DNA of 64,000 bases, taken from assembly GCF_000003815.2 (NCBI RefSeq), contig NC_049979.1, positions 5,630,762-5,694,761 on the forward strand, in the 5' to 3' direction. The translations under genes were made by a program, and so were the position numbers. The DNA is from Branchiostoma floridae. Lineage: Eukaryota; Chordata; Leptocardii; Amphioxiformes; Branchiostomatidae. Below the pieces are notes generated by a model. That model did no database searches. It was not told the origin of the DNA and saw nothing but the letters and a program-made list of their open reading frames with translations. This document shows positions 14,001 through 43,400 of this stretch, in pieces. Each line of letters begins with the position of its first letter. Position 1 is the first letter of the stretch.

Positions 14001-16456
14001 GTTGCTCACCCCGAATTTTTGGTCGCACATCCGTCGCACGTTAAAGAACCCACTGCACTTAAGTTATTGAAAAGAGTAGGGGTCCTTCCTGGTGTGAGCG
14101 GAACAAACCTTACAGTCTGGTCTCTGGGTTGACATCATGCAAAGGTGATGATCACCTGTTATGTCAATCCTTCCATAAATGTGGTGAAACTGAACATATG
14201 AAAATAAATACAGTATAATGCAGAGCTTACATTCTCTTGCAAATGCTACTTCTAGAGTCATTTTTACTTTAGAAGCCTTGAAAATGTTTGAGATCTCAAA
14301 TCAAACAGTCTCATAACTGGCCTTATAATAATTACCTAGCCTTGTCCTTAGACTGTAGCTCCTGTATGGACGGCAGGCCATGGAAGTGTGCCTTAGCCAG
14401 CATCTTCAGCACATCCACATGGCTCAGGTATGTGTCGCACAGCTCTATTCCAGAGCTCTCCCCCGCCTTCATAAACTTCATCTTGGCATTGAACAGCAGG
14501 TACCGCAGCATGCTGCAATAGTGACAATACACATCCTTAGCCCCTCTCATAGCAACGATATCTGAATTTGGAAATTGTTCCAGTTGTAGAAGGCTGATTA
14601 AGGCCACAGCAATTAGATTTCAGGGATCAGCACGCTCATTAATTTTCACCTGATTTCAGAAAAAACAAGAGTTCAGAGACCTCATACCTGCATGAAATAT
14701 TTAGTTTTTTGTAAATTTATTGTTTTATCTTAACACACCACACTACCAGCAGACTAGCCCCATGCTGTAGTGGCTTGCACAAATGTGTGGCCCAAGGGCT
14801 AAAGAAATGGAGATGGGCACCACCCTACGCATCTGTTACAGATATGTGGGCAACTTTAACTTAAGTTTCAACCTTATAATGAGACTTGAGTCCACATCAG
14901 GATAGTTGAGGTTGAGAGACAGGGCGTGGCTGAGCTGCACCATCTGCTGTCCTGCAGCGCGGTCATCACTGTGGAGGTTCAGCAGGGACACGCACAGGGA
15001 CGTGTTGGGGGCCTGCAGGGGACGGGACATCATGTGTTTATTTTCTTTTACCACCTGACTGCAGTGTTCCTGTCCTCCTCTTACTCCTTCTAACCTGGCC
15101 TTATTTCTTCACAAATGTTCAATATCACTGTGATAGCTTTCCCAACATGAATGTACCAATGCCTCATAGTGTGTACCTGTTCATAGTACATGTAGAACTC
15201 CTCCCTGGCTGCAGTGTTCCTGTCCCCCTCTAGCTTCTTCTAACCTGTACTTATTCCTTCACAAATGTTGATGTCATGACAATATCACTGAGATAATTTT
15301 CCCAACATGAATGAACCAATAAACCAGTGCCTTGTAGTCTGCACCTGTTCATAGTACATGTAGAACTCCTCCCTGACTGCAGTATTCCTGTCCTCTTTTA
15401 ACTCCTTCTAACCTGAACGTATTCCTTCATGTGGATTTCAAGACCATATTACTGTGTTAACTTTCACAACACGAATGAACCAATAGACCAGTGACTTGTA
15501 GTGTATACTAGCCTGACTAAAATCGTGCCCCTAGCAGCCGGCCCTACAATTGCCGCCACCCTAGGGGAGGGGTGTAATTAACCCCAGCCAGCAAGAGATT
15601 GTGTAAACACAGGCTATAGTGTGTACCTGTTCATAATAGAACTCATCCCTGACTGCAGTGTTCCTGTCCTCCTCTAACTCCAGCCTCCAGCTCCATTGCT
15701 GGTCCAGCTGCTCCTGGTGGATGTCTGGCTCCAGCGCCTCGCTGGTGGCACTGCCAGCACCGCTGGCCACAGGGCTGGCACTGATACCTAGGGTGTAGTT
15801 ATAGGTACAGTCAAACCTGTATTATCTGTATCTGTATCAATACAGCTGGTATAACTAAGCTGCTATGAGTGGCCGCTATAGACAGGTTTGACTATAGTGG
15901 TAAATAAGTTATCCCTTTTGAACAGCTTGGCTACACCCCTTTGAAAACCATTGCTAAAATGTCTCTTTTAGATTAGAAAAAAAATCTTTATGTATACAAC
16001 ACACCTGCATTATGTACATGTGGTAAAAAGCTGTTCCATTGTTGCAAAGAAACTGATTTTTTATATTCCTTTATACACCTTTATGACCAGAGCAATGTCC
16101 GCGTGGGTAGAATGTTCGCCTTTCATTTGGTAGGTCGTGAGTTCGATTCCCGGCCGAGTCATACCAAAGACTTTAAAAATGGTACATGCTGCTTTCTATG
16201 CTTAGCACTCAGCACTAATGAGGAAGAGTATGGGACTTAAACACACATCACTACCAGTGGGCCAGCCCCCTGCTGTAGTGGCTTGCACAAATGTGTGGCC
16301 AAAGGGCTACAGAAATGGAGATGGGCACCACGTCCCTATACATCTGCACAGATGTACGAGTAATTTTAACTTTAACTCTATGACAATGGATTGTATCTAG
16401 TACCTGCTAGTCTGGCCTTCAGTCTGTCCTCCAACTGTGGACTGGAGGGGCGGGAT
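8004..16456 (-). CDS. ZFYVE26: ZFYVE26 exons 35-48 (C-terminal part)
   Basis: Exons: 16456-16404, 15787-15627, 15012-14873, 14512-14336, 13936-13771, 13312-13187, 12861-12706, 12359-12162, 11607-11345, 10922-10757, 10340-10281, 9677-9495, 8625-8575 and 8222-8004. Blocks include RDEFYYEQ, LCVSLLNLHSDD, MFVKAG-type FMKAGESSGIELCDTYLSHVDVL, the TPR-like WAAWGMAYLRTGNYQGAREKF, ECLYYLRTYGTHL, MTCIRFFSARASTYTELFD, DVTKFLHRC, DGFGLAFRIIQ, and the end ILCGKLKSAYLIAV, followed by a short basic tail. This matches the helical C-terminal region of vertebrate spastizin throughout. Confidence 0.92.
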
Positions 16457-19400: not shown

Positions 19401-22400
19401 TAATGTTCTTAATACACAAGGTAATATGTCACATGTCTGGATCATAACCATTCTGAGAGTGACCAGTACCTGCAGTATTCCGGTACTGCACCACAGGGAA
19501 GTCCAGTGCCTTGGCAGCATACTTGGCCAGTATGGAATCTAGCTGGTCAAAACGCAGGTCGGCTATGTCTCTACTCATTTTCAACTCCTCATGGAGAACC
19601 TGTACCACCTGGGAGGCCCAGGCAACCTGCAGATTACAAAATGGGGTGAAAATTAACTCCCTTTTATAATAGCCCAAACATGAAATTTGTCATACCTTTT
19701 TTAATAGTGTTAAAAATCCTATAAATGGAAGTGTTAATTAAACCATAAATTCAACTGCAGAACTACAAAATTTCTTACAAACAAAGACATAGCTGTAATT
19801 TCTAGGACATTAGTAAATTTTTTTGGGTTACATGTAGGTGGGATCCTTCATCTTCTACTGTCTCCGAAAAAGAAGTCAAACCCAATAGCTAAGTTTTTTG
19901 CTTTGTTCATGCTTAGTTCATTTGAATTTATCACTAGAGTTAGTCGCTGCATACTGTTTACCATTGTTTGTCTGTCCGTTTTTTTCACTTGCAATTAGCC
20001 CTCGGGCAAGAACTTGCGATAAACTTTGAATTATAAGTAAAGACAAATACATTTTGGGGGGTTTCATTCTGGTTGTATCTTACCCTCATGTTCATGAGCA
20101 GCTGCTCCAGGATGAGGTCAGGTCGGGTCACCAGATGTTCGTACTCCCCACGGGCTCCTGATGGGAGGCAAAGGAGGGCCTGGGGAGGGCAACAAACAGT
20201 CATTGGTGTCTATTAGATTACTGTCATTGCAATAATGCTGTGAGAAATGTTATCAGCAACAAATAGAGCAAAGAAATCATCAAAACTATCAGGGTTGGAC
20301 AAGTTTTCTAAAATTCACTTGTCCTATCACTTGTCCTATCATTCTAAAATTCACTTATCCTATAGCTGTAAAAAGCTATAGACTGAAGATCCACTAGTGC
20401 AGGAGAAAAGTTAGAACATTTTGTTTCTGGCTACAGATATCAAGATGACACTCTGATGGGAAACTTACATTACCTTGGCACCCATTTTCCTGAGACAGAG
20501 CTGCTGTAAAAAGCTTTAGACTGAAGATCCACTAGACTAAGTGCAGGAGAAAAGTTAGAACATTTTGTTTCTGGCTACAGATATCAAGATGACACTCTGA
20601 TGGGAAACTATGGTACCTTGGCACCTATTTTCCTGAGACAGAGCTGTTGTAAACATAGACTGAAGATCCACTAGTGCAGGAGAAAATTTAAAGTTAGAAC
20701 ATTTTGTTTCTGGCTACAGATATCAAGATGACACTCTGATGGGAAACTACGGTACATACCTTGGCACCCATTTTCCTGAGACAGAGCTGCTGCAGCTTGT
20801 CCAACTGCAGCTCATTCTGCAGATGATCCAGCAGGTACTGCAGCAGGAACAGCTGACTCTCCACCAGCTGCAGCTTGGGGAGGATGTTCTCACACACTGA
20901 GAGGCAGGTGGACTCGGATCCTAGGTTCTGCAGCACCTGAATAAAAATTACAAAATATTTGGCTTGATGTTCTCAAACACTGAGAGACAAGTGGACTCGC
21001 ATCCTAGCACCTGAGAAATCAAAATTACAAAATGGCTTCAGTGTCACTGACGAAAGATACTGGATACTATCTGAAACATCTGACCGTTTCCAAATCATAC
21101 CCAGTTTCTTCAGTAACTGTTTTTTGGCATATCTTATTACCTGGATGTCCAATCTTCATCGATGCACAAAATGGCTTGTTGACAAAGGATATCTTCAGTG
21201 GATACAAACCCTTGGGTTAAAAAAAGTTATCCATTATGCACAGACTAACCATCTGAGATCTGACTGCCTGTGTAATACCAGTAAAATGAAGACAAGTTAC
21301 TTGCAATGAACTATTGTTCAACAACTACCTGAGATACCACTACATAACTATCTAGCAGTATGATAGAACTGTACATGTAAAGCACGGTACCTGGTACGCT
21401 TTGGTAGTGTCTGCCTTGTGTCTGCCATGCTCAAGAAGCGAGATGACATACTGCTCCTCTACCATCTAAAATCAAAAGTACAGAATTAAGTTATAAACAT
21501 TAAAAAAAACTTTCACAATCATGTCTGATTCAATTAAATCACATTCAGCAAGAATCTGAGTCAAACCCCTTTATCCTCAAAATCATTCTAATTTAGTCAG
21601 TGTTCTAGCCAGCCTGAATTTTTTTTTTCTGTTCCCTGTATTTTGAATGGAAATCCTGGCATAGACGCAACGATCCTAGGGGGTCCGGGGGTATGCTCCT
21701 CGGCAAAATGTTGAAATCCCCTTTATAAGGCTATTTCCTTTATTTTGAGGGGCAAATTTTGCCGGTAGACTTAGCTTGGTTCGATTAGTATCTTAACATG
21801 CCAATTTTTGTCCATCGAAGAGGACAGAATGGGCAAAATTTTTGTCCGTACCCAGCAGCAAAATTCCGCCAAAGGATGGGCGTTGGCTAGAATCCTGAAT
21901 TTAGTTCATAAAAAATTGCATATTTCTTTACCTGCTTCAGCCTCTGTGGAACATTATGCAGTTCTGCCCACTCCCTGGTTGTAGCGAAGTCCTTTGCCCT
22001 CAGCAGTATTCCCAGGATCTTGTTAGGATTGGCGACAGACTCCTCTGCCACGGCCTGCCACCTGGTGAATGCGCTCACGTCTGCATCCAGACTGCTGCAT
22101 CCTGTCTCCTCCTCAAGGTACACTGCTGGGGCAGCCTGCAGGGCACAGTTCACGATCTGCAAAGCAAAATGTCGATCTTTAACAAACATTTGTGGTGTCA
22201 ATTAGGTACAGTCAAACTTGGTGGAGCAACTACCTGCTGTCAGAGGACACATCATTACAGTCCCATCCATCCATAGTTAAGACCCTTTCCCAACCAACCC
22301 ATCCTCCTAACGCCCGGTCCCCAACGGCATTAGCCTATGGGGGCCTGCTATCTCATGCCCTATCAGTGGTTATTATGATTGTCGCCACAAACCAGCTGTC

Positions 22401-25400
22401 AACCAATCAGACAATACGCTTTTCTTGGGCTTTTTGTTGTCGCAAGCTGTCTTGCAAAGGCCGCTGGGAAGCTATCAGCCAATCATGTTACGTATTATAT
22501 GGCTCCATCCTCCTACGCCCGATCCCCAACGGCTGACTGCCCATATAAGGGCAAGCTCATTAATATTTTTAAGTAGGACGGTCCCTAACTGGTCTGAGGG
22601 CACAAGATAGCAGAGGTAAATACAAGGAGTTTTGACACGACTGTGGTCCCTCTACGTAGGAGAATGAACCAACTGTCTTACCCATTGGCAACCAGCAACC
22701 ACATATTTGCAGTCCCCATGGGTATATCGCACCCATCTCAACAACAAAAATTGATAAACATCAAGCCTAGCAGCCGGCATGGCAAAATGAGAATTTCTGC
22801 ATGTTCATTCCATTCTAACATCATCATCGTCCTTGAGACGAGAAAAAAAGTTTTTCCCATGTGTTTCAAATTGTTTTTCCCATGTGGGTGCATATCGATG
22901 AATTCAATTTATGTGATGGGTTTCCAAACATGATCAAAAAGTTAGAATGTCTTTTAAAATTGTTTTCGATACCTTTCTTTCAATATGTAACAAACAAACA
23001 AAGAAAACGATTACGTGTGCATCTAAATTTGTCTGGAAATGTGCGTTGTTTGTCAGCTATGATTTTCTTTCATCTTTCATTTCTAATTTCTTCAAAAGGT
23101 TCTGTTTCACATTGTGTCTCAGACCTTGCCTGATGCAGAGCGTGTATTTTTGCTGTGCAGAAACCTGACAAGTCGGACCATGCCGGGAGGGCAACAGCAG
23201 TCCAGAACAGGTGATACTGGTAAACACATTAATTTAAAACATAAAACATTCTTCTATTGATATGTGTCAGCTACCAAGAGGATTTGTTTTTAAAAAATCA
23301 TGTTATGACAACTGTAAGGTTTGAAATTACCCAGTGACGGGCTATCATATATTTCTATTCTTCCAAATAGCATTTGGACGAGGCATGAAGCCTGGAGGAT
23401 GCATTCTCACGGCAGTATTTTCTCTATCGGGGTTTGATTTCATGAAATCTTGGAGTGACTGTTCTCCCTAATTCATACCGTCGACGCTATTTTTATTTTG
23501 GAATTTCCTCCAGGCACCACACCCATGCAGCAGACTGATTGGCAGGCACGTGCCGATGCTGCTGCGAGTATACCTAACCCTATGTACGCCTCCAGAGCAG
23601 GTAAAACTTCATAATCCTGTGTGAGATTCATCGTACAATAACAAACTTATTACGTTCCTGAGTCACGAGGGTGCCGTACAAGCTTTAGCTGTGTTGTTAA
23701 GAAACGACTGTCTTAGATGCTTGTCGGTGGTCAGTAATCTGTCATAGACTGCTTGATAACTCTACGACTTCAAAATCGTAAGACAAACTTAGACAGTGTG
23801 ATGTTGTGACATCTTGCTATTACATTGACTCGTCTGCAATACAGACAAATCTAATTTCGTAAGCAATCGATTGAAATTATCGAACTACCACAAATTGGGC
23901 AAAAACGTTAAAAGAGTATATCATGCAATAATCAAATAGTTTTCTTTTGGCAGACTGCTTTGTTTTAAGAACAATGTTTAGTGACAATGCTTCAAATGTG
24001 ACCCAGATTTTCAATTTGCCTATTTGGAATGAAAATTAAGCTGTATACAAACTTTCCAGCATGAAAATTTGAAAAATGTAATAAAACTATGCAATATTGC
24101 GATATTCCATAGTTTATGGTAACCACGAGCAATGTTTTCTCTCAAAAGCATGTTTTGTTCAAACCTAGATTCTAATTTCCAAACAAGAAAAGCTCTTTGA
24201 TGGTGCAATGTACAATAACAGGAGAAGGGTGTCAATTTGCCACAGTTGTGCCTGTGTTCTTAATAAAATGGTACTACCATAGTTAAGGGATATATATTTG
24301 TTCCAATCATGTTGTATTTGATTTCATAAAGTGGCTATTTTACTTTAATTCATACCGTTGATACCATTTTTATTTTGTAATTTTCCTCCAGGCACCACAC
24401 CCATGCAGCAGACTGATTTTCAGGCACGTGCAGACGCCGCTGCGAGTGTGCCCAACCCCATGTACGCCTCCGGAGCAGGTAAATCATTTTTCAAGTCCAC
24501 TTACGGCGTGACGTTCTTGTCACGCTTTTATACATTTTGTCATATCTTAGTGTGTGTTTAATTTTGTAATTTTTTCCAGGTGCCACACCCATGCAGCAGC
24601 CGCAGACTGATTGGCGGTCCATTGCGGACGCCGCTGCGAGTATACCCAACGCTTTGTACATTTCCACAGCAGGTAAAACTTTGTAATCTCGTGTCATATT
24701 TGTCCTGCGATTGCCATACGATCACAAGCTGATTAACGATCACAAGCTGATTACAACCCTGATTACAAATTTTCGACTGTCTATTTCCGGTCTTTGTCAG
24801 TCTTTGTATGTCCTTGACAAAGACTGGAGTTGGACTGTCAGAACTCTCATGTCTGATTTTCGCTTTGGAAATAAAAATCCTTGTTTTCTAACAGACCGCA
24901 CGTATCCGAGTGGAACAGGCGGCCGTAGTGCTCTCTGTAGCTTCATCCGCTCCCAGCTTACTTACATTGTCCCGGGCATTGCCGTGCTGCTGAGCCTGGT
25001 CGCTGTTGGACTCGCCCTCCTGGCGTTCATCAATGATGGGGTAAGCGCTCTTGTATCACAAAGGCCTGTTGCAAAGCAATTTTTCTGACACTGCCTCTGT
25101 TCTGTTCATGGACTCCATCAAGCCATAACTTTCTGCTTTTTCATAAAATTGGTTGGAGGTTTTTTTAACGTTTGGTCTAACATACATATATACGTTTATA
25201 CGTTCGTAGAAGATATCTGACCAAGACGACATGCACCAACTGTCCACCATTATTGACACCTTGAAGCGCAACCAAGACGACATGCGCCAACTGTCTACCA
25301 CTGTTGACGCTTTGAAGCGCGACCAAGACAACATGTCCACCACTGTTGATACCTTGAAATGCGACCAAGACGACATGCACCAACTGTCCACCACTGTTGA

Positions 25401-28400
25401 CGCCTTGAAGCGTGACCAAGACAACATGTCCACCGCTGTTGATACCTTGAAATGCGACCAAGACGACATGCGCCAACTGTTCACCACTATTGACGCCTTG
25501 AAGCGTGACCAAGACAACATGTCTACCGCTGTTGAGGCCTTGAAGCGCGACCAAGACGACATGCGCCAACTGTCCACCACTGTTGACGCCTTGAAGCGCA
25601 ACCAAGACAACATGTCCACCGCTGTTGATACCTTGAAATGCGACAAAGACGACATGCGCCAACTGTTCTCCACTGTTGACGCCTTGAAGCGTGACCAAGA
25701 TGACATGTCTACCAATGTTGATGCATTGAAGCACGTCCAAGACGACATTCGCCAACTGTCCACCACTGTTGACGGCTTGAAGCGCGAACTGGACAAGGAG
25801 CGAAGCCGAACCACCACCATGGAGCAACGTCTTCAGGATATGAGTAAGTCACCAGGTAGGTTGGTTTTTTAGTTTTCAAATAGACTATTTGTGCTGGCAA
25901 CGTTAACGCAGTGCGTATATTAGCAGGAAAATTTGTGACTATCATTACTTTATCAAATGATACTATTTACCATCCTATACTATCAATAATTCCTATGCCT
26001 GCAGAATTTCTAGCATGAATGGAGCACGTACATATGTGGTATTCATTATCACCTTATTTACATCATCAATAATGTCCTTAGATGTACATGTACATGCTGT
26101 TATGTTTACGTAGTGTTTCACTAACTCCTATCATTTACTAATTATGCTGGACCAGGTATATTGAATAAAACTAATGGGAGATATGGATGCAGTATATGTA
26201 GTGGCTAGTCAGTGATGGAATTCTGGATCATTTCTAATATCACCAATATTTTTCCCTACGCATGTTGCTGACTCGCTGTTTTCCAGCATCTTGTCCCAAA
26301 GGTTACGCAGTGTTCCGTGGAATCTGCTACAAGGTCTTCAACACACCAAAGACCTTCAGTGATGCGGCCGCGGCCTGTCGTGAAGACGGCGGCACACTCG
26401 CCATGCCCCGAGACGCTGAGGCTAACGACTTCCTGATCTCCTTGTACAAGACTGTGCCGAGCAATCTTGCTCTCTGGTTCGGCCTGCACGATCGGCGCGG
26501 ACGGGGAAGCTATGAGTGGGTGGATGGCTCTGCACTTGGGACGTACAGCTCCTGGGGTCCGGGACAACCGGACAACCCATGCGACAGAGAAGATTGTGTT
26601 CTTTACTATTCATACCGGTATGACAAGTGGTACGGCTCTCGATGCGACATACGGTATTACTTCATATGCCAGACTGTTCCAGGTACTGCTTGTAACTGTA
26701 TCTGAAGCCCTTCTGTCTAGTAAACAGGACACTGTTTATCCTATATTTTCACCATACTAAGCACTTTAGATCATCTCAGCTTTCGCAACAAACCATGTCA
26801 AAACACATCATCCCACATCTCGCCCTTAATTTCTCATACTATTTTTCAGGACGTCTATAGGTGACAAACGGAAATCTTGCTACTACAGTACAGTGGCTCC
26901 CCAATCAATTGGAAGTAAAACAGAGTAAAAACGTACAGCAGAAACTGATATTCAAAAAAATTGTACATTTATAGTAAGCTGAATTTCTTTTGCTGTAGTA
27001 AAAATAAATGGACGAAAAAAACAAAGTGCCAGAATTTGAACCGATGGTATTAACTGGTGGAAGTGCCTTAACCAAGTTACAAAGATTTTCTTACTGTTCT
27101 TCAAAGTTTGTATACTGCTCATTTGAGCCTGGACCACTGAAGAAGCCACATTGATGAAATCTGTTTGTGTGACAGACTGAATAAAAGTTGTTAACAGGAA
27201 CTATGGCTCCGGCTATCTTACTGAGCGGTGACTGTAGTGAGAAAGATCTCTGTTAGCGTGAGGATCAGTTCACAGCATTTATATACGTGTTGTTGGGTTC
27301 CATATTGCCGCCAGGAAGAAACTCGTGATCGGCACAACGTGGCATTAGGTTTATCTAATTAGGTATGTATCTAATGTTAAAAACCACGGAAGAAAAAGGC
27401 AACATGGATAAAAGAAAAGCACCGACTCTAAGCACTAAGCAGTTAAGCGGCTTCTACTGTATTTAACTTTTACAAACATTTAACACCATAAAAATTAAAG
27501 ATTAGACAACCTGAAACCACAGTACAAACATGTCAAAACAAGCCCTTGAGACAAGACATTATGATGTGCATCTTACCCGTTGGTAAACCTTCATCTCCTG
27601 CAATGCCTTCTCCACTGCCTTCTGGAGTGCAGAGGACCTGAGACTGCTGCCTGCACACATCTCCAGTAGCTCCACACAGACGTCCACAGGCCACTGACCC
27701 AGACAGGCCAACACCAGATGAGCAGATAGATCTGGATCCTGTACTCTTAGGAGGTATCTCCAGCTTTGGGGTTGTTCCGTATCTGTCTGTGTACCAGCAC
27801 TGCACAGCACAAAGTCGCACAGTAGGGCTGCGTTTTCCACATCAAGGGCAGAGCTGTGATTTTCTACAATGTCAACTGCCTCCTGCAGCCTCCCCTGTTG
27901 TAACAGCTGCAGCAGGAGTTCTTTCACGTTGCCAGCTAATCTCGCATCTGTGTGACTAGAAAGAAGACTGGGAACGATGGCAGTAGAACTGGCCGACCTT
28001 CTTTCTTCAAAGGAGTCTGTCAGCTGGTTGGAAAGAGGAAGCACCATAGCGTGGATGAAGTTGTGCAACACTGGAAACTCGTCTTCTATGTGTAACTTGG
28101 TAGACTGTACTGTCTGGTTGATGTCTGTCTCACTGTCCTCATGAACTTCTGACTCTGCCTCATGGTCCTCTGGCTCTTCTGTGCTCTGCCTTGAGGATGT
28201 CTCACTTTGTCTACAGATAAGCTGAGCTAGAGTAGCCACCAAGTAAGACCGATTCCTCAAGTATTGCTGAGTTGTGCCAGATATTCTAAACATTGGAGAC
28301 TGTTCATCTGTCCTTGGTGCAGAGTCCTGTGCTGATGACAAAAGTTGGGATTGGTCTATCTCTGCATGCCTTGAATCAATGGGTCGTTCAAACATGAATG

Positions 28401-31400
28401 CATACTGGAATGTTGCATCAAATGGAACCAGAGAATAGGTGGTCCTTGGCTGGGATTGTCCTGAAATTCAAACATAATATATTGGAACTGTGGTGATAAG
28501 AAATTTGAGAAATGCACAAAGTTTAAAGTCAGCCAGCAATGCTACACTAACTACCTGGTAGAATACTTTTATCTGGATAAGAAGATGATGGTTTGCAGGG
28601 TTGGACAAGTCCACTAGCCCTATTGTCCAGGGCTAGTGGAAGTGCTGATTGGGCAAATGCATGGCCTACCCCAATGGGCAAGTAAGATTTTTCCATTGAG
28701 GGACATTTTGATATTCTTGTTACAGTCATGACATCAAGCAATGGTCAAGATAGAAAAATACAGGCAATCATAAGAATTCCATTGCTGGAAGTGAAATTGC
28801 ATATAAAAGTGACAAATTGAAAATTGGTTCGGGCAAGTAAATTTTTTATGTGCTTGCCTGATAGGACAAGCAAATTTTAGAAAACTTGTTCAACCCTGGT
28901 TTGGGGTTAATGTCATGTACAGAAATGACAGTGAATGTTCCTGATCAGACTGTTCCAAAGATCATGGATAATGTGACAGGGGTATTACCAGACTGTTCCT
29001 GCTGGGCCTCCAGTTTCCACAGCACATCAGCCAGGTGGGGAGGGCAGTGGTCTGCCAGCACTGACATCAGCGCCAGGAGGGGGTCATCGGGTGACTGGTT
29101 TTCACCAAGGAAGTCTTCCTTGTACCAGTCCAGCAACTGTGGAATCTTCACCTAAAGGTAGATAGGCATGATTGGAACACTCTGTTAGGCCACGTTGATT
29201 TGATTATATAGATGACATCCTCTTGGAATCCAAAAACTGATGCCAGTGTGTGAATAAAAAAAAGTTTGACCGAAAAAAATGTTGCTTTCAGTTCTTTCAC
29301 ATATTCTTTGACCATTTTCTATGACATAATATAAGTATACATGTGCCAATGTTAATTTTTACAATCCACAGCATATCTTTGATTATGTCTTGTTGTGACC
29401 TGTACTTAGCCCGGTGTGGCAAAAATGTGCAATAAAGATCTTCATTCATTCATTCATTATTTTAAAGCTTTTTTTGGACAATTTAGGGTGTGGTTGAAAC
29501 TTTTTTTATGTTTGAAAACGCTGGAAAATTGATATGCGTGTGGATGTCATCCATATAATCAAATCAACATGGCCTTACTGATAAATAAAAAGATGAATAC
29601 ATTGCCGCTAAGGTCAAATAATTCAAAGCAAGAAAAAAGTTTCCTTAAGACTCTATTGACATACATGTAAGATGGCCTCGTCCACTGCCAGCTGTGTCTC
29701 CAGGTACAGACGTATGGCTGTCTCCAGCTGCAGCTCAACTTCATCTGGCTTCAGCACCTAAAGTGGGGTGTACAAACATAATTAATGATTTTTGGATAAT
29801 TAGTTAAAAATGTAAAGTATTTGTTTATTCATCAGATTCTGACAGGGTCATTTTGGCGATAATTGAAGGTACACGTGCCTTGAACGTTACAGCGCAAGTC
29901 TTTGTCGGCGAATTCACCAACATTGCACGTGGCAATATCATTTACGGTAGATTTGACTTTGGCAGGCTCAATTGAAATTTGAGACAATCGAGACAATGTT
30001 ACTTGGTGAGAAGTGGGTAACTTATTGCTTGTGGTCAATTGATCACCTGTCTGTAGTGGCCACATTTCTCCAGTCCCTTGAGTGACCGCTATTGACAGGT
30101 TTGACTGTATATGTTTGCATATAGCTAGTGTTATTTACCTGAAGGGGTGGGGAAGAAGCTGCCCCCTCTGTCAGCACAAACAGAACCCTGGGGTCCGCAG
30201 GGGGCAGGAACTCATGCCAGGGGTCGTTTGGAGACAGTCCTATGTACAAAACATACAGTTCATATCAACACATACAAAATGTATCAGATTCTTCCTTATT
30301 ACTGGTTTACAGAACAATATTTTCTACATACGGCTATCATGTTCTAGTCATATATCTGCCTACGTCAATTTATCTATACTTTATTCCAGCCTCTTTATTC
30401 CAAATGTGAGACCAGAACACTCCTACATGACTTTGCTGTTATCGATAATATTTTGTTGTTCTGTATGTAGCATGTAGTGTACCATTGTCTATATAGCTAG
30501 TACATGTAATTGTCATTGCTTGCCATACATTGTACCTTGTGCGATTGTTGAGCAATAAAGTTCATTCATTCATTCATTCATTGTATGAACAGCAGCGGTG
30601 GAATATGCATCATATTTATCTCTATCATTCTGAATATTGATGGTTTTATATGAAATCTTTTGAGGAGCACAGAAAAAGAACAAAAAGAACTTCATAGCAC
30701 AACAATTGTACAAGGTACAAAGCATGGCATCTACTACATACATAACTTCTATAAGGTTAACCTACTTAATACAAGTGTACATAGTATAGGATGAAAATGG
30801 TCTATTAGAATCACTGGAGGGATTTCTAGCGTCTACACATTCCTAAATATATTTTCCTATGTATACCATACAGGGGTTGTCACATGTCATAATCTAAGTC
30901 CATATAATTGTTTATTATGTTTTTTTACAGGAACTAGATTGTGCTAGGCTTACCATGGAGTCTGTTCTTAAGCAGGGAGTAGTTGGAGGGGAGGGGCAAA
31001 CCATGATGCAACACCAGGAACCTCAAGTCAAGGGCACTGGGAAGAAACAGGCGGAAGCAGACATTGATGAGATCTATGACTCCTTCAACCAAATAAGGAG
31101 ACTCTTTTAAAAAACTATTGCTTTATTTTTACCAACGTTTTGGTGACTGTCTGTCACCTTTTTCAGGGCAATACCTAACGTGAGAGCATCTGAACTGTGA
31201 GCAGCAATAACTGTCCTGCAGTACAATGTGAAGCAGTCAGAATTGCTTAAAAGAAGATGACAGACGGTCACCGAAACGTTTTTAAAAATCTCAAGTCAAG
31301 TGCACTGGGAAGAAACAGGCAGAAGCAGAATACTGATGATATCTACTACTCTTTAAACATTTACACAATTAATGAAGCATATAAAGGACTGTGATCAAAA

Positions 31401-34400
31401 CACGCTCTGATTAATTGAAGGTAACTGGTATGAACTTACAGAATATGTTTTTTTTGTTTTGGTTTACTTAACTTGATAAAGATGTTTAACTTGCCTTGGG
31501 AACAAGGTTGTGCTAGCCCAAGTAAATGTCAAACTTCTAACTCTGCAGTCTCTGGCCGCCACTGGTCAAATTCTTATTAGATTCAGAACGACTGAATCCA
31601 CAAAGGTATGAATTCTACATTCAACTGGGAACAAAGAATACCATCCCCCAGTGTGGTTACGGTAAATGCAGAAATGTTTGCAGTTTTCGCGAGGCAGTCT
31701 TACTGCGAACTTAAAACCACTGCAAACACTCCACTTTCATGCTAACGCGAAATTAAATCCCAGGAAACTTAAATGCACTTACAGTAACTGTTCTTCTTCA
31801 GAGGTCGGTCTGAAGGACCACAACCTGCTAGCCGCCATACTAGACAGAGATGCATGGTCGGACATCATTAATTTAATGGCGCCTCTTTCGAGGATGAACT
31901 GAGCTGAACAGTCCTGCACATTTACCTTACTGTCCCCATCTGGCCAATGTTGTAGGCAATGCTGCTGAGCCAGATCACACTGTCGAGTGGGTGGCTACAA
32001 TGGAACAGAGCGAAGGGGGCAGCTTTACTCCCGGTCCTCCTCCTGGCCGCGAGCTGTGCCAGGGCAGCATGGGCCAGCATCAGGTTGAAGACGTTTGCAA
32101 AGAAGCAGAGCTTCTCCGCGTCGGTACCGAGGAGACTCAGATCCACTGCCTCCAACTGCTGAGCTGCTGCTGCCAGGTCATGGTAGTCTGAGGACTGACA
32201 GACCTGCACGCCTCCCCTGTGGTCAAACACTCCGTCTGTGGCATGAGCTGGACAAAATGTAGAGAGAGAACTTTATAGCACGACAATTGTACATGGTACA
32301 ATGTATGACTATTACACAGAGTACAAAGTAGAGGTATAGATTCTGAATAAGACTTTTAACATCCTCGTTAATATAACAATAAGGGCTAATACAAGTCTTT
32401 GATATAGTGTTACAATCGAGTTGGGCTAATCATGAGTTTAAGTATTCTTTCTAATAGCAAAGCAGTTTTTGATATATTTACCTATCTTTGCATTATGAGA
32501 GTTGTGCCATCTAAAGATATATACAAATCTGTCTGTAGCATCGAGTCTCTTGAAATCTGCTGTTTACATTACAACTGTATTCGAGAAATGTATGAAGAAG
32601 GAATCCACACTTATAGTTGCTGCCTCTTCATAGGGTTCATATGAATGTGATGACACCATCATTTGAAGGCAATATGATACAAAATTAATCTTAAGGCTAA
32701 TTGATTGTATATCTAATGTATTTGTGTACAGAAATGTATGAGAAATACCTTTCAGCAAGTTGACCATCCTTGACAGCAAGTCTTCAGCCAATCCTACTGG
32801 GGAGATCCTGCTCTGATCCGTGTCATCTTGCTCAGTAAAGTCTGATGCATTCAGAACCCACAAGTCCCCTGCAAGTGAGACAAAAATGATAATTGAAGTT
32901 TATTTGCAAGTTCATGCCCGGAGGCCAATTGCAAGTGATAATGGACGGTGATTAACATTATAATTGTAAAAAGGGGCTTAGGTCAAATACTAGTGTTGGC
33001 TATTTCTAAACAGGCTGGGTTTGACTTCTTTTTTGTATGCAGAGGAAGATGGAAAGAAACACTTTTTCTACAATTTGTGGGTTCTGCAATTTCAAAATAA
33101 CACCTATGATCAACTTCCTCGAAACCTGCGAGCAAATCAACACCTTACAATTGACCTGATCATGGCAAAACACTTCAGAAGTGTTTGTTTATGCTAGGTT
33201 GTCAGTATTTATTTCAATGTTGAGTTAGGAATAGAATATTGTCCATTGTGGTCAGATCTGATGTGAGTGGTGAAAATGCCTTCTTAACTCAGATGACATT
33301 TTACATGTAGTATGTGCATTTGATAGATCAGTATCTATTAATGTTTAAAAAATCTTTATATGTATTCAACATCACTCAATTGTTTCAGACAGAACTGCTG
33401 TAGTTCTTAACTAGGTTTTCTTCAAATTCACATCGCTATATACTGTTCAATTGCCTGTTTCCAAGTCCTTCTACAGCAGCAGTTTCTTTACCCGGATGGC
33501 AAAATTATGAAACTCCCTCGACGACACCTGTTTCCCTCCTGTCTACAACTTATCAGCCTTCAAAACAAATGTTCACTGCTATCTCCGTGCACAATTTCCA
33601 ACTTCTAATCTTAGTTCATTGCCTTGAAGTGGTCTTGTGACCTTGCTTTGAACAATCTCATTAAAAAAAAAGTTCTTCACCAGAGGTTGGAGACTGCTCC
33701 ATGGTGAGAGGTACCCTGGGACAGCAACTCTGCACGATCACATGCACCAGGTCCATCCGTAACTGCTCAGCAACGGTCTGCAATCTGTAGAGGGTCAACA
33801 GTAATACTAGTCAAGATACTGAAAATTCAGAAATGTTCACGGCAGATTTATGTTCACGTTTTTCACATTGCCAATTCACCTCAAACTTAAAACGACCGCA
33901 AACATTTTTCCATGGCAGTAACAGACTACAGTGCATGGTGCTACCGCAAACTTAAAACCGCCACCGCGAAACTAAATCCCCACGAACATGAATGCATTTA
34001 GAGTACCCAGATCTAGCAGACTCAAAACAAGATAAAGGATTCACATAAGGATGCCAGTTTAGTCAGGGGAAATGTCTGAAATGTTTCCTGCAGGACTGAA
34101 CAGTACTTACTGATCGGGAGGCACTCCATTGTCAAACATCAGTTTGCCCAGAGTGTAGGTGGGTCCTTCAGTCAGCACCAGAAAAGGGTTGCCAGGCTTC
34201 ACCTGGGACGCCCTACTCTGCTTGGCCAAATCTGAGAAAGCAAGGTGAGGAAATAGGATATAAGAGCATTCTTGTACACAACCAGGATGTACTTACATTG
34301 CTAGGAATGTCAACCCCCAGTGATGAACCGGGACAAGGGGGGATACAAACACTGCCACTGGCCGTTACGGTGAAAACGTCCTATAATGGGTGAATGTTGG

Positions 34401-37400
34401 TGAAACACGGTGAAAAACGGTGAAAATGTGTCACCCGGATTCGCATTGTTCCCATGTAAATATGGAGGGGTGAAAGCAAATCTTGCACCTACGTGACAAA
34501 AGAGTAAAACGTGGTGAAATGACGGTTTCACCCCTAGTAAAACAAACAGCAATTACGTTATTGTGTGTGTTGTTTCACGAGCTAGCGACGTGCCCGGCGC
34601 TGTCCAGTCTACGGCACTGGGTCAGAAGACTGCCCGCCCAGTTCCTCAGCGCAAGCCGGGGATTTTTTACGCCCCCTCTAGCTCCGCACGCCGGGCAAAT
34701 TTTAACGGTTACAGCTCGGCGCTATCTGTAACGGCACTGGGACTGAAGACTGCCTGCCCAGTTCCAGGATTTTTTACGCTTGCGACCCAGTCACATATTT
34801 CTGGGTCGGAACCACAGCATTGATTCCTTGCCGCATGCTTGCAAGTAAAATATTAATTTTTCATTCTGAAATCGAGAGCGCCATGACAGGACTTGTATCT
34901 GACAACCCTCTTTTGTATCGAGAGACCAGACATCTATTAAAAGCGCGTCTGATAAACTTATAAAACTTGGTAAAACATTGTGTCCGGGCTTTTTCCCAGT
35001 CAAATACGGCGCTAAATCAACTCCGGCCGCCATGATGCACGGCGTCTGCAAGCTTGCAAGACGTGCACGTGACCGGAATACGCACCTCTGATTGGTTGAT
35101 CCTACAGCTTTAGGGGGTTCCCCACTATGATCTGCGCTCTGATTGGTCGAGCTTTCTTTGCTGCCCCATGATGCCTTGCGACCACGCACGTCAAACTAAA
35201 TTTCTTTGTATTAAAAATGTTACATTTCTACGCAAAAAACGCTCTATTCCACAATTACATTGCAATATTCTCGTAAAGAAATACACAATTACAATAGTCT
35301 TTCGAGAAAGCATGCATTTATATCCGCATTTATGGGGGAATTTAAGCTGGGAATGTAAAGATACGGCCACGGAAAATTCTTTGATTACGGCTCCCGACAA
35401 CAACAACAAAACTTACTCAGAGGATCTGAAAGACGTAACGTTAGAATATATTTCCCAGTGTTGCAAATGCTGTAAAACTATGAGTTATTGGAAGATATTC
35501 GTGCATAACCAATAATCGGATGATTCGGGCCTGGTAGAAGCTGCATGACCGCCAGTCCAGTCCGGTACCTCGCCAGCCAGCGTCGCTTGGTACTGATTTA
35601 ACGTGATATTTTTGCACCAGTTGTTCCATTCTAAAATTCGGCATAATAAATATTATAAAACATTCTTTATTTTTATGATATACAAACATGATCCAAAGTT
35701 GCTCAAAATCATGCTGTATTCCGAACGCAGTATGGGGAGGGTAACGTTAGGTGACTGTATGCCATGCTGGCTTTCCATCATTTTTCGGGAAAAGAACACT
35801 CTAGTAGCAAAACTCCCCACGATGTCACCACGGTTTTCGATTTCGATTTTTTTCAATCGTGTGGATAGGGTCTAATACCGCCCAACAGCGGTAAAAATTC
35901 CCCGGCTTGTGCTGATGAACTGGGCGGGCGTTCTACACTCCCAGCACCGGCTAGATAGCGGCGAGCTACCGATGGTATGTTTCTTTGTCTATGGAGTTGC
36001 GTGCGCCCGTACGATGACACCTTTCACCGGAGGTGTTAATTTCAGCGGGGTGAAACACGGTGAATTTTCTATTGTGTTCTGGTGCAAAGTAAACACTTGA
36101 AATTTCACCCCATCCTTGCATAATCTGCTCAAAATATGTGATAATTGCTCAAAATTAACCCCTTGCAGAGTAAACATAAAAGGGGTGACTTTGACTCAGA
36201 ACAATCAGAGTACCTATTTCAACCGTACTTTCACTACAATTCACCCATTAGAGGACGTTTTCACCGTAACGGCCAGTGGCAGTGAAAGTTGGCCACGTTT
36301 GGGATTGTGTTCTCGCCGCAAAAGACACCACCTATATCGGTTACATAAAGCTGCAAGAAGCAAAACTCCTGACAGGCAGTGACCAAGCCTACTGTGGACA
36401 GGCTACTATAGACAGGAGCTTACCCTGGTGTTCTGTGAGCAGGGTTGTCATGGTGCTGACGTGGGTGTACAGACTCCTGAGGAAGTCTGCCCACTGCACG
36501 TCCTCTTCCCTACACACGACTCAGTAATGTATTAAGTATAGTACACATCCCCACGACTCAGTAATATATTAAGTATAGTAGACAGGAGCTTACCCTGGTG
36601 TTCTGTGAGCAGGGTTGTCATGGTGCTGACGTGGGTGTACAGACTCCTAAGGAAGTCTGCCCACTGCACGTCCTCATCTCCAAGACTCTCCAGCTGCTCC
36701 ATGTGCCACAGGCTGCTGCACAGCACAGGGTAACCGTCGTATACTTTGATCAAGTGTTGCATGGCCTAGAAAGAATGCAGACAATGTCAGCATACTCTAG
36801 TTTTGATAATGATTGACCTGCTTTTATAGGTTTACCTTAACATTCACGGAGTCTCACCTAAATAAAGGTTCAGAACTTGAACTATGCGGCTCCAAATGTC
36901 TTACTGAGGGATGACTGTGGTGCGATAGATGTTGGTTAGCTGAGGAATGAGTCCACTTTACTATATACTGACCTACTTTTATTGATTTACCTTAACGTTA
37001 ATGGAGTCTCACCTTGTTTGAAGCCTGACGTGCTTTTAATACCTTACTTGTAATACTTTACTTTTTGTTACTCTTTGTCCTGACTTTGTCATTACCACTA
37101 ATAGCCACAGTCTATAGAATTGAAGAATCAACAGAAAGCAAATTCTGAAGAATGTACCTGTTGAACTGCACTACGTTTTGCCTTGCCAGTCTTTCCCTCC
37201 AATGTCTGCATATCTCCATCCTCAGACAGGGCCTTGAACAGTCTCTCCACAGCTTTCTCCCTCTCCAGCAGACTGCTGACCTGATTTCGCAGTTCCTCCC
37301 CATCCAAGGACGTGGAACCTCTGCCTAAAACGTCCCTTGCACTGTGTTGGAAGAACTTTGCCTTAACCTGAGGAAAAAAAAAATATTGTACATAGATCAG

Positions 37401-40400
37401 AGTTCAGCCAAAGCTAACATGAACAAAACTAATTCTGTTCTAGAAAGACTAAAAAGGTACAATATACTAGGGGAAAACCATATTTGTTGCTTCTCAGATT
37501 TTTTCCAAAAAAATTGGACCGACAGGTCAAAACTTTTTTTTCCAAAGGTCTGGGGTGAAGATACACGGTTTAAATAACACCAAAAAAAAACAGCCTAAGG
37601 AATGGAACAGACTGCCAGCAGAGGTAGCCCAAAGCCCCACTCTTGACAATTTCAAATCACAGTTATAGATCCCTCCCCACCCGTCCCTCCCTCCCCATTA
37701 TAACATTCCATTTGGCTACTCCCAACCTTGCAGTAGACCCTCATACAATAGGAAACATAATCTTCACTATACGGTTGCCTCAAATGAAAGAAGACTATGC
37801 AGTAAGCCTTCTTTCCACCTTCTCACCTCTGGCCGTATAAGAGAAGAGCTCTCCCCCGAGTCCTTCCCCACAACGCCCACAATCTGCTTGAAGACAGACT
37901 CAAAGCCAGCAATGCTCTCCTCAGCCTTTGAGATCCTGTGTTGGTCTTCCTTTCCAAGCTTGTAGTTCGTCTGCAGTTCCTGGCTCTTGACTGCAGGTGT
38001 GACTTTCTTGTCAGCCATCTCCAGCAGAGACCTGGACACCTGTGATGGGAACGGCCAAAACAAACAAACTTGAATCATGTAGCAGTTCTCTCTATCATGT
38101 AGTTTGTACGTTTGTACGTTTGTATGTAAAAATTGTGTATATAGACTTAAAGGGACTTTAAACAATGTAAACTGTCTCTGTTATATATGCTGTCTGACCC
38201 TTGCCTCTTCCTTCATAACCTCAATGAAAAGTGGCCTGCAGGCCAATTTGAGCTTTCATGAATAAAAAAAGTTTCAAACAATGCCACCTATGTTGGTTTA
38301 TGTTGTATTTAGTTAGACTGACACCCGATATTAAGTTGGTTTCGTCCAATAGTTAAGTCTGACCACCGACACCTTGAGGTCAGCCATGTTGGAATAAAGC
38401 TCTTCAAGTTAGTTGCACTTGTGTCGCCCGTGAGTCGCTCCCTTTAGCGGTCCTTCTACTAAGTTCAGTTCAGTTCAGATCATCCTCTACTAAACTGGCG
38501 CAAAAAATTAAACAAACCTCCCATCTACATTAGAGCACAACAGCCGACACTGAACAGAGACGGGGGCCGATATCGTCTGCCAGGCATTTATGATTCGTTA
38601 CTTGAATCACGTGTCTCTAAGTCACGTGATCAGAGTAACTGAATCGTCACTCCTGAAGAAGGTCGACGGAAGTGCGACTGAAAATTCGAGGTAAGCTAAT
38701 TTTGGTGTTGTAAGACAGTGGAAAATCTTCAATATGTACTACATCAACACACATGAGCTTTCATGCTAACCTCCCAGGAGTTGGTGGCAGTGCAGGCCAA
38801 GTCAAAAATGATCATGGCGGGGACGTTCTCACTCCTAATCAGGGAACAGATGAGGGGCTTCGTGGCCATCTCCTCCTCATCAGCCCACACAACAGCTGGA
38901 AGTCTCTCTGTCTTCAGCAGCTGGTCTACAATGTTGTTGAGAGACATCGAGGCCATCCCCGCTGCAGCGGCACTGGCGATGGCACCCAGCGGCGACTTGC
39001 TCATCGCGGCAGGCTTGTCTGCTTTGCCACTCGTGTTGCCCCCTTTGGACTTCACCTCCACTGACTGGAGCTGCTTGCTTGCTGCTTCGTAGTTCTCCGA
39101 GAACTTGACCTCTGCGACGTTGGCTTCATTCTTAAACTGGAACATCTTGATAACCTACAGAAACAGGAAGGACAATCATAAAGATTGTTTTTGGTGACGT
39201 CATAGTGACTTTGGTAGTGACCTTGGCAACGCCAGTTTAATCTGTTGGTTCTCGGACTTTAGAAAAAAAATATGCTCGACTGGAAAAACATAATGAAAAC
39301 AAAGCCAGACAAACAGGTTTATGCTTTGGTGCACTCACTTTTATGACGTGAATACAGTCATATTAAAGTTTTCCTCTCTGCCCATTGCTTTTATGATGTC
39401 TGTTTGCTATATTTTCACTCAAAAAACCAAGAACCAAGAAATTAAATTGGTCTGGCCTTATTACCAGTTAAAGTAACGTTTAATTTCTTTCTTTCTTTCT
39501 TTTTTTCTTTGTTGATGATGAAACAACTCATCACATGGGACTGCCTAGTCCTGCTAGGGCTGGTTGCATCTGACCCGCAAAATACAGACAGACATACACA
39601 ACAAACATTACAACATGATACAATATAAAATTATCAATAACTATCAAATTTGTCATGCATCTACAGATATCTGAGAAAATGATCTATAACATACCTAAAA
39701 GATGGGAGTGAGTGGAGTAGGTGGAAGGTTACTTAGTAAAAGTAACCTATCTCCAAAGTGATGGACACAAGAACTTCATAAGCCTTATTTTGCTATTCAT
39801 TCTTTATGTTATTGAAACCCTTACCTGATGAGCCTGAGTGTAATTGCCTCTTTGTAAGCACATGTTTAGAAGGGTGCCCTTGGTGGCCAACATCCTGGGA
39901 ATAATGCCTAAGGATGAATCAACAAAACTGCTTTAAAGCTGGCGTAGTTGATGAAATCGAAGTATGACAGTGTGGTCCGCAAAAATGAGGGGCAAAGAGT
40001 CATACATGAACTCGTCTTTCCACTTTTGAAGCAAAAGTTTGGCCAACTTCATATGTATACATATTTGTGAAACTACATGTACAGGTCAACGGCAACACTC
40101 ATTTTACTATGAAGGTCATACAATGTCACTTAACAAGTTTCCTTTTTACAGGTTTATAATTTCATGTCACATCAAACTGTACAGATTTCTAAATGATGTC
40201 TCCATCTGCTATCCTACCTGTTTTCCTTTTAAGGACAAGAGAACTGGCTGCTGAGCTGTATCGAGCGCTGTGGTTCCTCCTCCTGCGACGCCTGCCCTTG
40301 TCACTGTCATCTATAAATCATGAACAACAACCCATCACTACCGTTTCTGGACTGGCACAGTACCAGCCTGGGAGTGGGTACCACCTGGATAGTAGTTCGC

Positions 40401-43400
40401 TCCTGTATATGTTTGCTTCTGCTACCTGTCTGGAGACCTACGCATTCAAACCCTTTAGTCTGTTGATGAGCGAATTAAGGAATAGGTTCTAGAACACTCG
40501 TTCGATGACAACAGGCACTCCCGCAAGCGGATGGAGGGCTTGTCCAGTGTTGGAACGCCTGTTCGAACGATCTTTTGAATCCATTCCTTAACTTGCTCTA
40601 GTGCAAGGACCAGTCAGCACCCTCGTCCAAAATTTGGATGATTCCAGACATTAACGCGGCCAAGGATCCCAGACGAAACAGCAGAGAAGCGACTGTATAT
40701 AGTGTACAATGAATGTCAGAGCTAGAAGCGAACTACTTTCCAGATGGTACCTAGGCCATCAGATACACCCAAAGACATTGAAAACGTAGCAAAACCTGCA
40801 AAGAGAAAAAAAGATAGCAGGCAGGGACTGTAGGGTAGCCACTAACCAGTTGCCGTGCCAGTCTGTGTGCCAGTCACCTGCTCACTGCCTGGGAAAGACT
40901 TCTCACTTTCTGCCCCAGTTCCTTGAGAAGTAGCTAGCAGCACAAATTAAGAGGTGCAAATTTTAACTGAAGCAAGTATTTCGGATTTACTATTAATATA
41001 TCTATACTATATCCGTTGCTTTTGAAAAACATGGAATTTAGGGTGTTAAGTCAACGGATTCAAACTGCAATTTTTTAAAAATATTGCAGTTTGAAACCAT
41101 CTTCCGTCAAATTGATAATCCTAAACACCCTATTCTAAATACAACGGATATAGGTTACTCTGCGGATAAAGGTGAACTAGCGTTACATAGAAGCAAGCTA
41201 AAGCTGGTTTACAGAATATATCCTTAAAATCACGATGCTAGACACCAAAAAAATCTGTCTACAGCATTAAAAATCTGGCAAGTACCTGTCTCACTCCTGC
41301 TTCTGCTAGATGAAGTCCCCCGTTTCTTTCTTTGTCTTTTACTCCTTTTGTCTTGTTCCCACCTGCTGTAGTAACTTCCCATCTCATCACCACTGCTGGT
41401 GTCTCCCGAGTCTCTGCTTCCCACAGCAATCAGACCTAAAAACAATAAACCTGTCAGCATCAGACTATGACACGCTGTACACTAGCGTTTTCTGAGATGT
41501 CTTGGCCCAAGATGTCTCAGGAAACACTTAATTTCCCAGTAGAAAGAGAAATTTTATAAGTGTCCCAAGACACATTTCCTGCTGTGCGTCTTGAGACAGC
41601 TCGAGAGGTGCACCCAAGATGCTCAGCGGGAGAGCCAAGACCCTTTTTTCCTGTGTAAGGAGAACAGAGCCTGCTTAGAGTCAACTTGGAGCGGTGCCTG
41701 TAGGCCAGAGGGCATATATTATTGAGCCTACCAAGTGCAATCTCCACAGCATTTTGGATCTGTGTTTACTAGGAGGTTGTTTTTCATCTTTTCTCACATC
41801 TTCGAACAGGGACAGTTTTATTCTGATTGCAGTTAGAGTCCACTACAACCCTTTGATATTTCCCCCCACATTTGCGGCAAAACTGCCCAATTATTACGGA
41901 GGACAGAGTGTGGCCAGATGCAGAGACACAAATACATGCCTGCAAGCCTGCTCTGCGGGGAGTCCGAGACAGCTTATCACAGCGTGTGTGAAGATGGGTT
42001 TGCTGAGACATCTCCGCGAGAGGTGTCTCAAGACAGCTTTAGCATTTTTAGTGTAAAGAGAGCCTAACTTTCCAAGGTACAAGCCCACGAAAAGATGACC
42101 CCAAACATACACTAAGTCTTGGTAATCTTTTCCTCAAGGATGCAGAAGACCCCTAACCTGGCTGTTTTGGGACATGTTCTGGTACCACCAGCTGGAAGCG
42201 CCACTGAGCCTCGTTAATGCACTGGTCCAGCCTGGAGATTCTCTGCTGCAAGGAGCTCTCCGTAATGGAGGACGACACACACTTCAGGAGGTCCTCATCT
42301 GGAAAGATGGAGCAATCAAAGATGTTATAAAATCTGGTTATGATTATTAGTTTCTCAGAAGTTATTTAATGTCAATCTTTAGCTATTTAGCAAACTTTAA
42401 ACAGTTAAGAATTCCAGCAAAGTGCTTTGATTACGAGGGACTGAGTACCCCTTCTTGCAACTCACCTTCTCCGTTCTGGCCCTGCCCTAGCTTGGCAAAC
42501 CTGGCAGACTTGAGGTTAAGAAAGCACTCCTTCAGCACAGCCAGGATGTCTCGTACCAAGCACTCATCCATCAGAAACCCCAGCCTGGGCACCTCCCGGG
42601 TCCAACCATCCCCACTTCTCCCGCTGCTGTGCCCTGACAACCCATTCCTGTCCTCACTGGCCGGCTCTGCAATGTCCGACAGACTAGGATGATGGTTCTT
42701 GTCCCTCCCTTTTTTCCTCTTGGTGGTGGGTTCTTCTTTAGTAGCTGTTACCTCTTCTCTATTCTCAGGGACCATGGCTTCTTTGCCTATAGCTATCCCC
42801 TCGCTTGCCTGGACTATGGCGTCTAACACTGTTCCCGGTACATTTGGCTTCCATGTGGTGCTATTGTCTGCTAATATTCTGTACACCTCAGTGCTAGATA
42901 CCATCTCCACACTGCTGTCCAGGGAGGGTGGACAGCTGAGTAGACTCTCTCTTCTCGACCCGCGGTTTGTCCTGTCCAGTTCGTATTGCCCCTCCTCCCC
43001 TCCGCTGTCGGACAGAACTGACCTGTCGTCGAGCAGGTCGTCGTGGGTGACAAACAGCAGGGAGAAGATGTTCTCCAGCACCTCAGCTCGGAAGGTCAGG
43101 GGTTGGATCTGGGACAGGTGGTCCTTCCCTACCTCCAGGTTCTTTGTGACAAGTCTGCCATACATCTCTTCCATCTGTGCAGAAGGCTGGGTGCCGCTGA
43201 TGTTGCTTCCCGCAGACAGGCTGCTGTTGGCCCTGGCTTTCATCCCCAGGTCCTGGCCGTGCAGGATAGCGTCCATGAAGCATCTTATGGCACAGTAACC
43301 CCTGGAAATAAGTGCAGGTATATTTTGAATTTAAATTTATCTGGTGTATTTGCAGCCAGTGACATAGGCAGGTACCCAAAGTCAGTAATGAGGCTGATTA

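What the first reader, a model, noticed from the sequence alone, without database searches (positions are those of the whole stretch)
28989..32247. A DUF547-type domain inside spastizin (ZFYVE26)
Five consecutive exons read in order through the conserved blocks of DUF547: an FFANVFNLMLAHA helix, YNIGQM followed by an SALDL motif, DPRVLFVLTEGAASSPPL, and IPQLLDWYKEDF. The blocks are spread over five exons with three different intron phases, so this is an old part of the gene, not a recent insertion. I know of no DUF547 in vertebrate spastizin, where the matching stretch is a poorly conserved linker. If real, either the ancestral chordate protein had this domain and vertebrates lost or eroded it, or cephalochordates gained it. 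DUF547 has no known function, and linking it to a PI3P-binding lysosomal scaffold would be a first clue.
Basis: partly seen in the sequence, partly recalled or inferred. Interest (0 to 1): 0.88.

Follow-up and report, generated by a model that had tools for sequence, protein, structure and literature searches.

The report
Dead DUF547 module inside amphioxus spastizin
In this amphioxus-like genome, the counterpart of the human spastic-paraplegia protein spastizin carries an extra complete DUF547 domain that has lost its likely active site and that the human protein lacks.

Summary
Five exons (32247-28989, minus strand, all GT-AG) splice in frame into a 47-exon ZFYVE26/spastizin model (50652-8007) and give a full-length Pfam DUF547 match (65.4 bits, cut-off 27, E 6.5e-18). 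A profile built only from prokaryotic DUF547 proteins also finds it (49.2 bits; best of 1000 shuffles 2.1). Human ZFYVE26 (PDB 8yad_C) aligns on both sides but has 51 residues where amphioxus has 347. The block is 762 nt and flanked by phase-1 introns on both sides, so it can be lost or gained in frame. And it has lost the residues nearly invariant elsewhere: Glu 77/78, His 78/78, Cys 77/78, Cys 77/78 in prokaryotes, and all four in three amphioxus paralogs, while keeping much of the fold signature. I read it as a catalytically dead DUF547 kept as a structural or binding module of the AP-5/SPG11/SPG15 coat. One shared intron and extreme divergence hint at old age, so vertebrate loss is likelier than recent gain. 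No third animal could be examined, so this is not shown.

The parts
8007..50652 (-). ZFYVE26 (spastizin/SPG15) coding region, 47-exon model, 3021 aa
   Evidence: human ZFYVE26 8yad_C matched at E 1.2e-297
31926..32247 (-). DUF547 exon 1 (preceded by a phase-1 intron; ends in phase 2); helix FFANVFNLMLAHA
30954..31036 (-). DUF547 exon 2 (ends in phase 1); SALDLRFLVL, where paralogs have S-L-x-D-I-E-H/N
30139..30239 (-). DUF547 exon 3 (ends in phase 0); DPRVLFVLTEGAASSPPL, where a paralog has DPRIHFALVCGARSCPAI
29665..29757 (-). DUF547 exon 4 (ends in phase 0); EVELQLETAIRLYL helix
28989..29151 (-). DUF547 exon 5 (ends in phase 1); VKIPQLLDWYKEDF; its 5' intron sits at the same codon position and phase as in the C8 paralog
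29701..32122 (-). span of the Pfam PF04784 match, model residues 1459-1604 (introns included)
   Evidence: coordinates derived by hand from the exon table
31021..31023 (-). Arg codon where 77/78 prokaryotic and 3/3 paralog domains have Glu (a His five residues on in the alternative 4-row alignment)
30181..30183 (-). Leu codon where 78/78 prokaryotic and 3/3 paralog domains have His
30166..30168 (-). Glu codon where 77/78 prokaryotic and 3/3 paralog domains have Cys
30151..30153 (-). Ser codon where 77/78 prokaryotic and 3/3 paralog domains have Cys
32248..32748 (-). phase-1 intron before the DUF547 block
28461..28988 (-). phase-1 intron after the DUF547 block; with the one before it makes a symmetric 1-1 module of 762 nt
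16888..17642 (-). FYVE zinc finger (two exons), model residues 2266-2329
   Evidence: coordinates derived by hand
8076..9656 (-). TPR_ZFYVE26 (PF25569), model residues 2896-2998 (two exons)
   Evidence: coordinates derived by hand

Best explanation
The segment is a complete but non-catalytic DUF547 domain, a built-in module in the middle of amphioxus spastizin (residues 1417-1670 of 3021), ahead of its FYVE finger. Shown: membership by profile, in-frame place in the gene, loss of the E/H/C/C set, absence in human. Partly shown: a kept hydrophobic core. Inferred: the domain still folds and works as a binding or scaffolding surface of the AP-5/SPG11/SPG15 coat on late endosomes/lysosomes, placed there by the FYVE finger, and does no chemistry. 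It descends from an ancestral eukaryotic DUF547 domain. Being a symmetric phase 1-1 exon block, it could be dropped cleanly in the line to vertebrates.
For: Pfam match over the full profile. Prokaryote-only HMM with 1000 shuffles as control. ZFYVE26 identity through human 8yad_C, FYVE and TPR_ZFYVE26. Human gap: 844-1370 aligns to 712-1239 and 1718-3000 to 1291-2526 (similar breaks), and neither the segment nor three DUF547 profiles list 8yad_C at E<=10. Lost site. The only prokaryotic departures from E, C and C, 1 of 78 each, fall in one protein, L087, which suggests one site lost as a unit. Core: 46 of 51 strongly hydrophobic columns kept, against a mean of 34 and a maximum of 45 in 200 realigned shuffles. 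Phase 1 on both flanks, 762 nt. Phase-0 intron 8 residues before the invariant Trp shared with the C8 paralog.
Against: No third animal was available, so ancestry and loss rest on one pair of genomes. No RNA evidence. The spliced protein was not folded. The core test is clear by count (0 of 200 shuffles reach 46) but not by fraction: ZF keeps 0.90 of the columns it fills and at least one shuffle reaches 0.93. Of nine internal length changes against the prokaryotic model, three fall in loops, three at helix ends and three inside a strand or helix, so the fold may be altered. Binding is a guess: no partner is known. No test of selection was possible. The shared intron could be chance (my estimate about 4%: 4 introns against 6 positions in about 570 slots).
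Confidence: 0.58

Rival explanations
1. Cephalochordate gain: a DUF547 block was shuffled into ZFYVE26 only in the amphioxus line, and human shows the ancestral state.
For: The block is a symmetric phase 1-1 module, from my knowledge the classic form of shuffled exons in animals. The genome has at least three other DUF547 loci as donors.
Against: The copy is only 24-30% identical to those paralogs, depending on the alignment, while two of them are 48% and 51% identical to the third. Its tree branch is about 4 changes per site. Three of its four internal introns match none of theirs. This fits an old rather than a recent copy, though fast decay of a dead domain would look alike.
Confidence: 0.25
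2. Relic: the domain once mattered, has lost its active site, and is now a tolerated passenger without function.
For: E, H, C, C all gone and an exceptionally long branch. Three of nine internal length changes fall inside predicted strands or helices.
Against: Reading frame and splice sites are intact across five exons, and 46 core hydrophobic columns are kept, more than in any of 200 realigned shuffles.
Confidence: 0.17
3. Active DUF547 with a rearranged site: the domain still does the chemistry of the family with other residues.
For: Both Asn of the N-x-Y-N motif, W-Y-x-x-D-F, and the Trp and Leu of the C-terminal Y-D-W-x-L-N stretch are kept.
Against: All four near-invariant polar positions are replaced (R, L, E, S), and Tyr, Asp and Asn of the C-terminal stretch are too. 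I know of no activity for the family.
Confidence: 0.06
4. Gene-model artefact: the five exons belong to another gene lying in a spastizin intron.
For: No transcript evidence; the 47-exon model is my own, with one doubtful 8-nt exon elsewhere.
Against: Both flanking junctions are phase 1 and read through in frame, and there is no stop in the 3021-residue model.
Confidence: 0.04

Closest known systems
Human ZFYVE26 / spastizin / SPG15 (PDB 8yad chain C, 2539 aa)
   Same: Collinear homology on both sides of the block, FYVE region included.
   Different: 51 residues where amphioxus has 347; not listed at E<=10 by the segment or by three DUF547 profiles.
Canonical DUF547 domains: three amphioxus paralogs (C2:14.26 Mb, C2:15.19 Mb, C8:16.40 Mb) and 80 prokaryotic loci
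   Same: Profile match, both Asn of N-x-Y-N, W-Y-x-x-D-F, many core hydrophobic positions.
   Different: They keep E, H, C, C; spastizin has R, L, E, S. Only 24-30% identity to the paralogs; inserts of 20, 8 and 6 residues against L012.
L087, DUF547 protein of an Omnitrophica MAG
   Same: Also lacks E, C and C (R, V, G) while keeping W-Y-x-x-D-F: another naturally degenerate copy.
   Different: Stand-alone bacterial protein; keeps the His.
Entamoeba histolytica PTEN with DUF547 (PMC9122207, one figure-legend passage)
   Same: DUF547 listed among the features of a phosphoinositide phosphatase family.
   Different: A lipid phosphatase, not a coat protein; the passage does not say which PTEN bears it, and its sequence was not examined here.

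Membership tests
PF04784 (DUF547) as a sequence family | Pfam profile score above the curated cut-off of 27 bits | tested here: met
   65.4 bits on the segment, 64.4 on the whole protein
PF04784 (DUF547) as a sequence family | match over the whole profile | tested here: met
   profile positions 6-125 of 125
PF04784 (DUF547) as a sequence family | same fold as other members | not testable with these tools
Indirect: core columns 46/51; three of nine length changes lie inside predicted elements.
Canonical, putatively active DUF547 proteins | Glu, His, Cys, Cys at the four near-invariant positions | tested here: not met
   R (or a nearby His by another alignment), L, E, S in spastizin, against 77, 78, 77, 77 of 78 prokaryotic proteins and 3/3 paralogs. 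L013 and L022, left out of the count for length, keep the set.
Canonical, putatively active DUF547 proteins | N-x-Y-N helix and W-Y-x-x-D-F | tested here: met
   N-V-F-N (Tyr replaced by Phe) and W-Y-K-E-D-F; part of this conservation in prokaryotes follows from the search patterns
ZFYVE26 / spastizin | collinear homology to human ZFYVE26 | tested here: met
   8yad_C, three stretches, E 1.2e-297
ZFYVE26 / spastizin | FYVE finger and TPR_ZFYVE26 | tested here: met
   67.3 and 116.5 bits
AP-5/SPG11/SPG15 complex membership | physical association with SPG11 and AP-5 | not tested
   Assumed from human (PMC7814351 passages). The search for the spatacsin family PF14649 in this genome did not complete.

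The most novel reading that the evidence does not exclude
Spastizin ancestrally carried a DUF547 pseudo-domain, dead as an enzyme but kept as a binding module of the AP-5 coat, and the vertebrate line deleted it as one phase 1-1 exon block; the human disease protein is a trimmed version whose short linker marks the scar.
Probability: 0.43. Interest if true: 0.65.

Novelty: new variant of a known kind. Interest (0 to 1): 0.5.

Why it matters
SPG15 loss causes hereditary spastic paraplegia. A whole domain present in a chordate relative and absent in human marks where the protein can carry, or once carried, another function, and gives a removable in-frame module for testing it. For DUF547, whose function is unknown and for whose bacterial model no clear structural match was found here, it gives a natural dead version and points to the E/H/C/C set as the thing to test in the live ones.

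Tried and rejected
Bacterial transfer straight into the gene: disfavoured, since two of the three amphioxus paralogs are the nearest rows (29.0 and 28.0%) and one shares an intron. The margin is small: bacterial L021 (26.9%) is nearer than the third paralog (24.0%). Recent duplication of a paralog within amphioxus: disfavoured by low identity and by mostly different introns. Viral origin: no relative in viral contigs and no BFVD fold match at E<=0.001.

A first core test (47 of 52 columns, 0 of 10000 shuffles) did not realign the shuffles and is too generous; one search replaces it and is weaker by fraction. After rechecking this I lowered the best explanation from 0.62 to 0.58 and the novel case from 0.45 to 0.43, and raised the relic reading from 0.15 to 0.17. 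A DEP domain near the C2:14.26 Mb paralog is only a sub-cut-off match (20.7 bits against 32.7).

Papers: 'DUF547' with 'ZFYVE26' 0 papers; 'ZFYVE26' with 'Branchiostoma' 0; 'DUF547' alone 21 papers, seen as a listing, two of them read in passages; 'PF04784' 3 papers, seen as a listing. That the combination is not in print rests on these open-licence searches only; automatic database annotation of it is quite likely.
Full report
WHAT IS THERE. The window lies on contig C1 of a 513-Mb assembly. A minus-strand gene runs from 50652 to 8007. An 8-nt exon at 40225-40218 is doubtful. The product is ZFYVE26: FYVE, TPR_ZFYVE26, and a collinear match to human ZFYVE26 chain 8yad_C at E 1.2e-297.

THE DOMAIN. 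A profile built from 60 of the 80 prokaryotic DUF547 proteins found here (one of them archaeal) scores 49.2 bits on the segment; the best of 1000 shuffles scores 2.1. Chance is excluded. In the wider alignment even the Trp and Leu of the family's C-terminal Y-D-W-x-L-N stretch find partners near the end of exon 5, while its Tyr, Asp and Asn do not. So the five-exon block holds about one whole domain.

HUMAN LACKS IT. phmmer aligns amphioxus 844-1370 to human 712-1239 and 1718-3000 to human 1291-2526 (shorter queries break at nearly the same places). So 347 amphioxus residues face 51 human ones. The segment itself and profiles from the paralogs, from prokaryotes and from paralogs plus spastizin do not list 8yad_C at E<=10. 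Human is the only vertebrate tested.

THE BLOCK IS A CLEAN MODULE. The five exons sum to 762 nt, and both flanking introns are phase 1, so the block can be removed or inserted without touching the frame. Its internal introns are in phases 2, 1, 0, 0. Three amphioxus paralog domains were joined from G000. Reading their splice borders by hand gives six intron positions within the domain. One of them, in the C8 gene, is phase 0 and lies exactly 8 residues before the invariant Trp, as does spastizin's fourth intron. I estimate about 4% for one such coincidence by chance, so it is a hint only. The other three spastizin introns match none.

THE LIKELY ACTIVE SITE IS GONE. In 78 proteins (L013 and L022 left out because their open frames are long; both keep the set) the alignment shows Glu 77/78, His 78/78, Cys 77/78, Cys 77/78 and Trp 78/78. 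These four polar positions were not part of the search patterns, whereas N-x-Y-N and I-F-K-W-Y partly were. All three paralogs have E, H, C, C. Spastizin has R, L, E, S; in another alignment the Glu falls on a His. The only exceptions to E, C and C are all in one protein, L087, which suggests that these residues form one site that is lost as a unit.

IS IT STILL FOLDED? 46 of the 51 strongly hydrophobic columns that spastizin fills stay hydrophobic, against a mean of 34 and a maximum of 45 in 200 realigned shuffles. By fraction the result is weaker: 0.90 in spastizin, mean 0.77 and maximum 0.93 in shuffles. Of nine internal length changes against the bacterial model, three fall in loops, three at helix ends and three inside a strand or helix. 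I read this as a folded but modified domain; a relic is not excluded.

AGE. Spastizin's copy is 24-30% identical to the paralogs, depending on the alignment; two of these are 48% and 51% identical to the third. In a tree of 43 rows (39 of the 78 prokaryotic ones) it sits next to the amphioxus domains on a branch of about 4 changes per site, which the program flags as unsure in place. This fits an old domain evolving without catalytic constraint, but fast decay after a younger gain cannot be told apart from it.

HOW IT PROBABLY WORKS. In human cells the SPG15 FYVE finger binds PI3P, and the AP-5/SPG11/SPG15 complex is recruited to late endosomes and lysosomes with Rag GTPases (PMC7814351, passages). 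AP-5 is old, with representatives in five eukaryotic supergroups, and SPG15's distribution is said to match closely (PMC3191125, passages). A structure paper on the complex exists (Mai et al. 2025, seen only as a reference-list entry in PMC13178560); that 8yad belongs to it is my inference. I infer that the DUF547 module juts from the middle of amphioxus spastizin and offers a binding surface for a partner of the coat. Which partner is unknown. A link between DUF547 and phosphoinositide proteins has precedent in an Entamoeba PTEN figure (PMC9122207, legend passage).

VERDICT. A real domain combination, not found in print as far as searched, better described as a dead DUF547 module than as a DUF547 enzyme. 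Vertebrate loss is the likelier history but is untested.

Noticed in passing
36409-36508 and 36579-36678; 44734-44862 and 44880-45008; 20396-20465, 20540-20609 and 20679-20748: Short tandem duplications of 89-100% identity that copy pieces of ZFYVE26 exons and adjoining introns: assembly or haplotype artefacts, or local exon duplications.
   Followed up: partly
31287-31329: A 93% copy of the acceptor and first bases of DUF547 exon 2 (31019-31061) lies 268 bases upstream in the intron, a pseudo-acceptor that could confuse gene prediction.
   Followed up: partly
L087:2866-3690: A bacterial (Omnitrophica MAG) DUF547 protein that lost the conserved Glu and both Cys but kept W-Y-x-x-D-F: another pseudo-DUF547.
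   Followed up: partly
L013:838-3687 and L022:988-3654: DUF547 at the end of long open frames of 950 and 889 residues, possibly fusions with another enzyme.
   Followed up: no
L006 positions 5589-6053 (G000:C2:14.264 Mb): Dual-specificity phosphatase exons (PF00782, 70.4 bits) lie between two DUF547 exons of the C2:14.26-14.27 Mb locus.
   Followed up: no
18846-18945: A run of 100 N, an assembly gap, inside the ZFYVE26 gene between exons 19626-19470 and 17812-17580.
   Followed up: no
25059-25848, 60408-60887 and 62425-62929: Long open frames made of repeated short peptide units, probably minisatellites.
   Followed up: no
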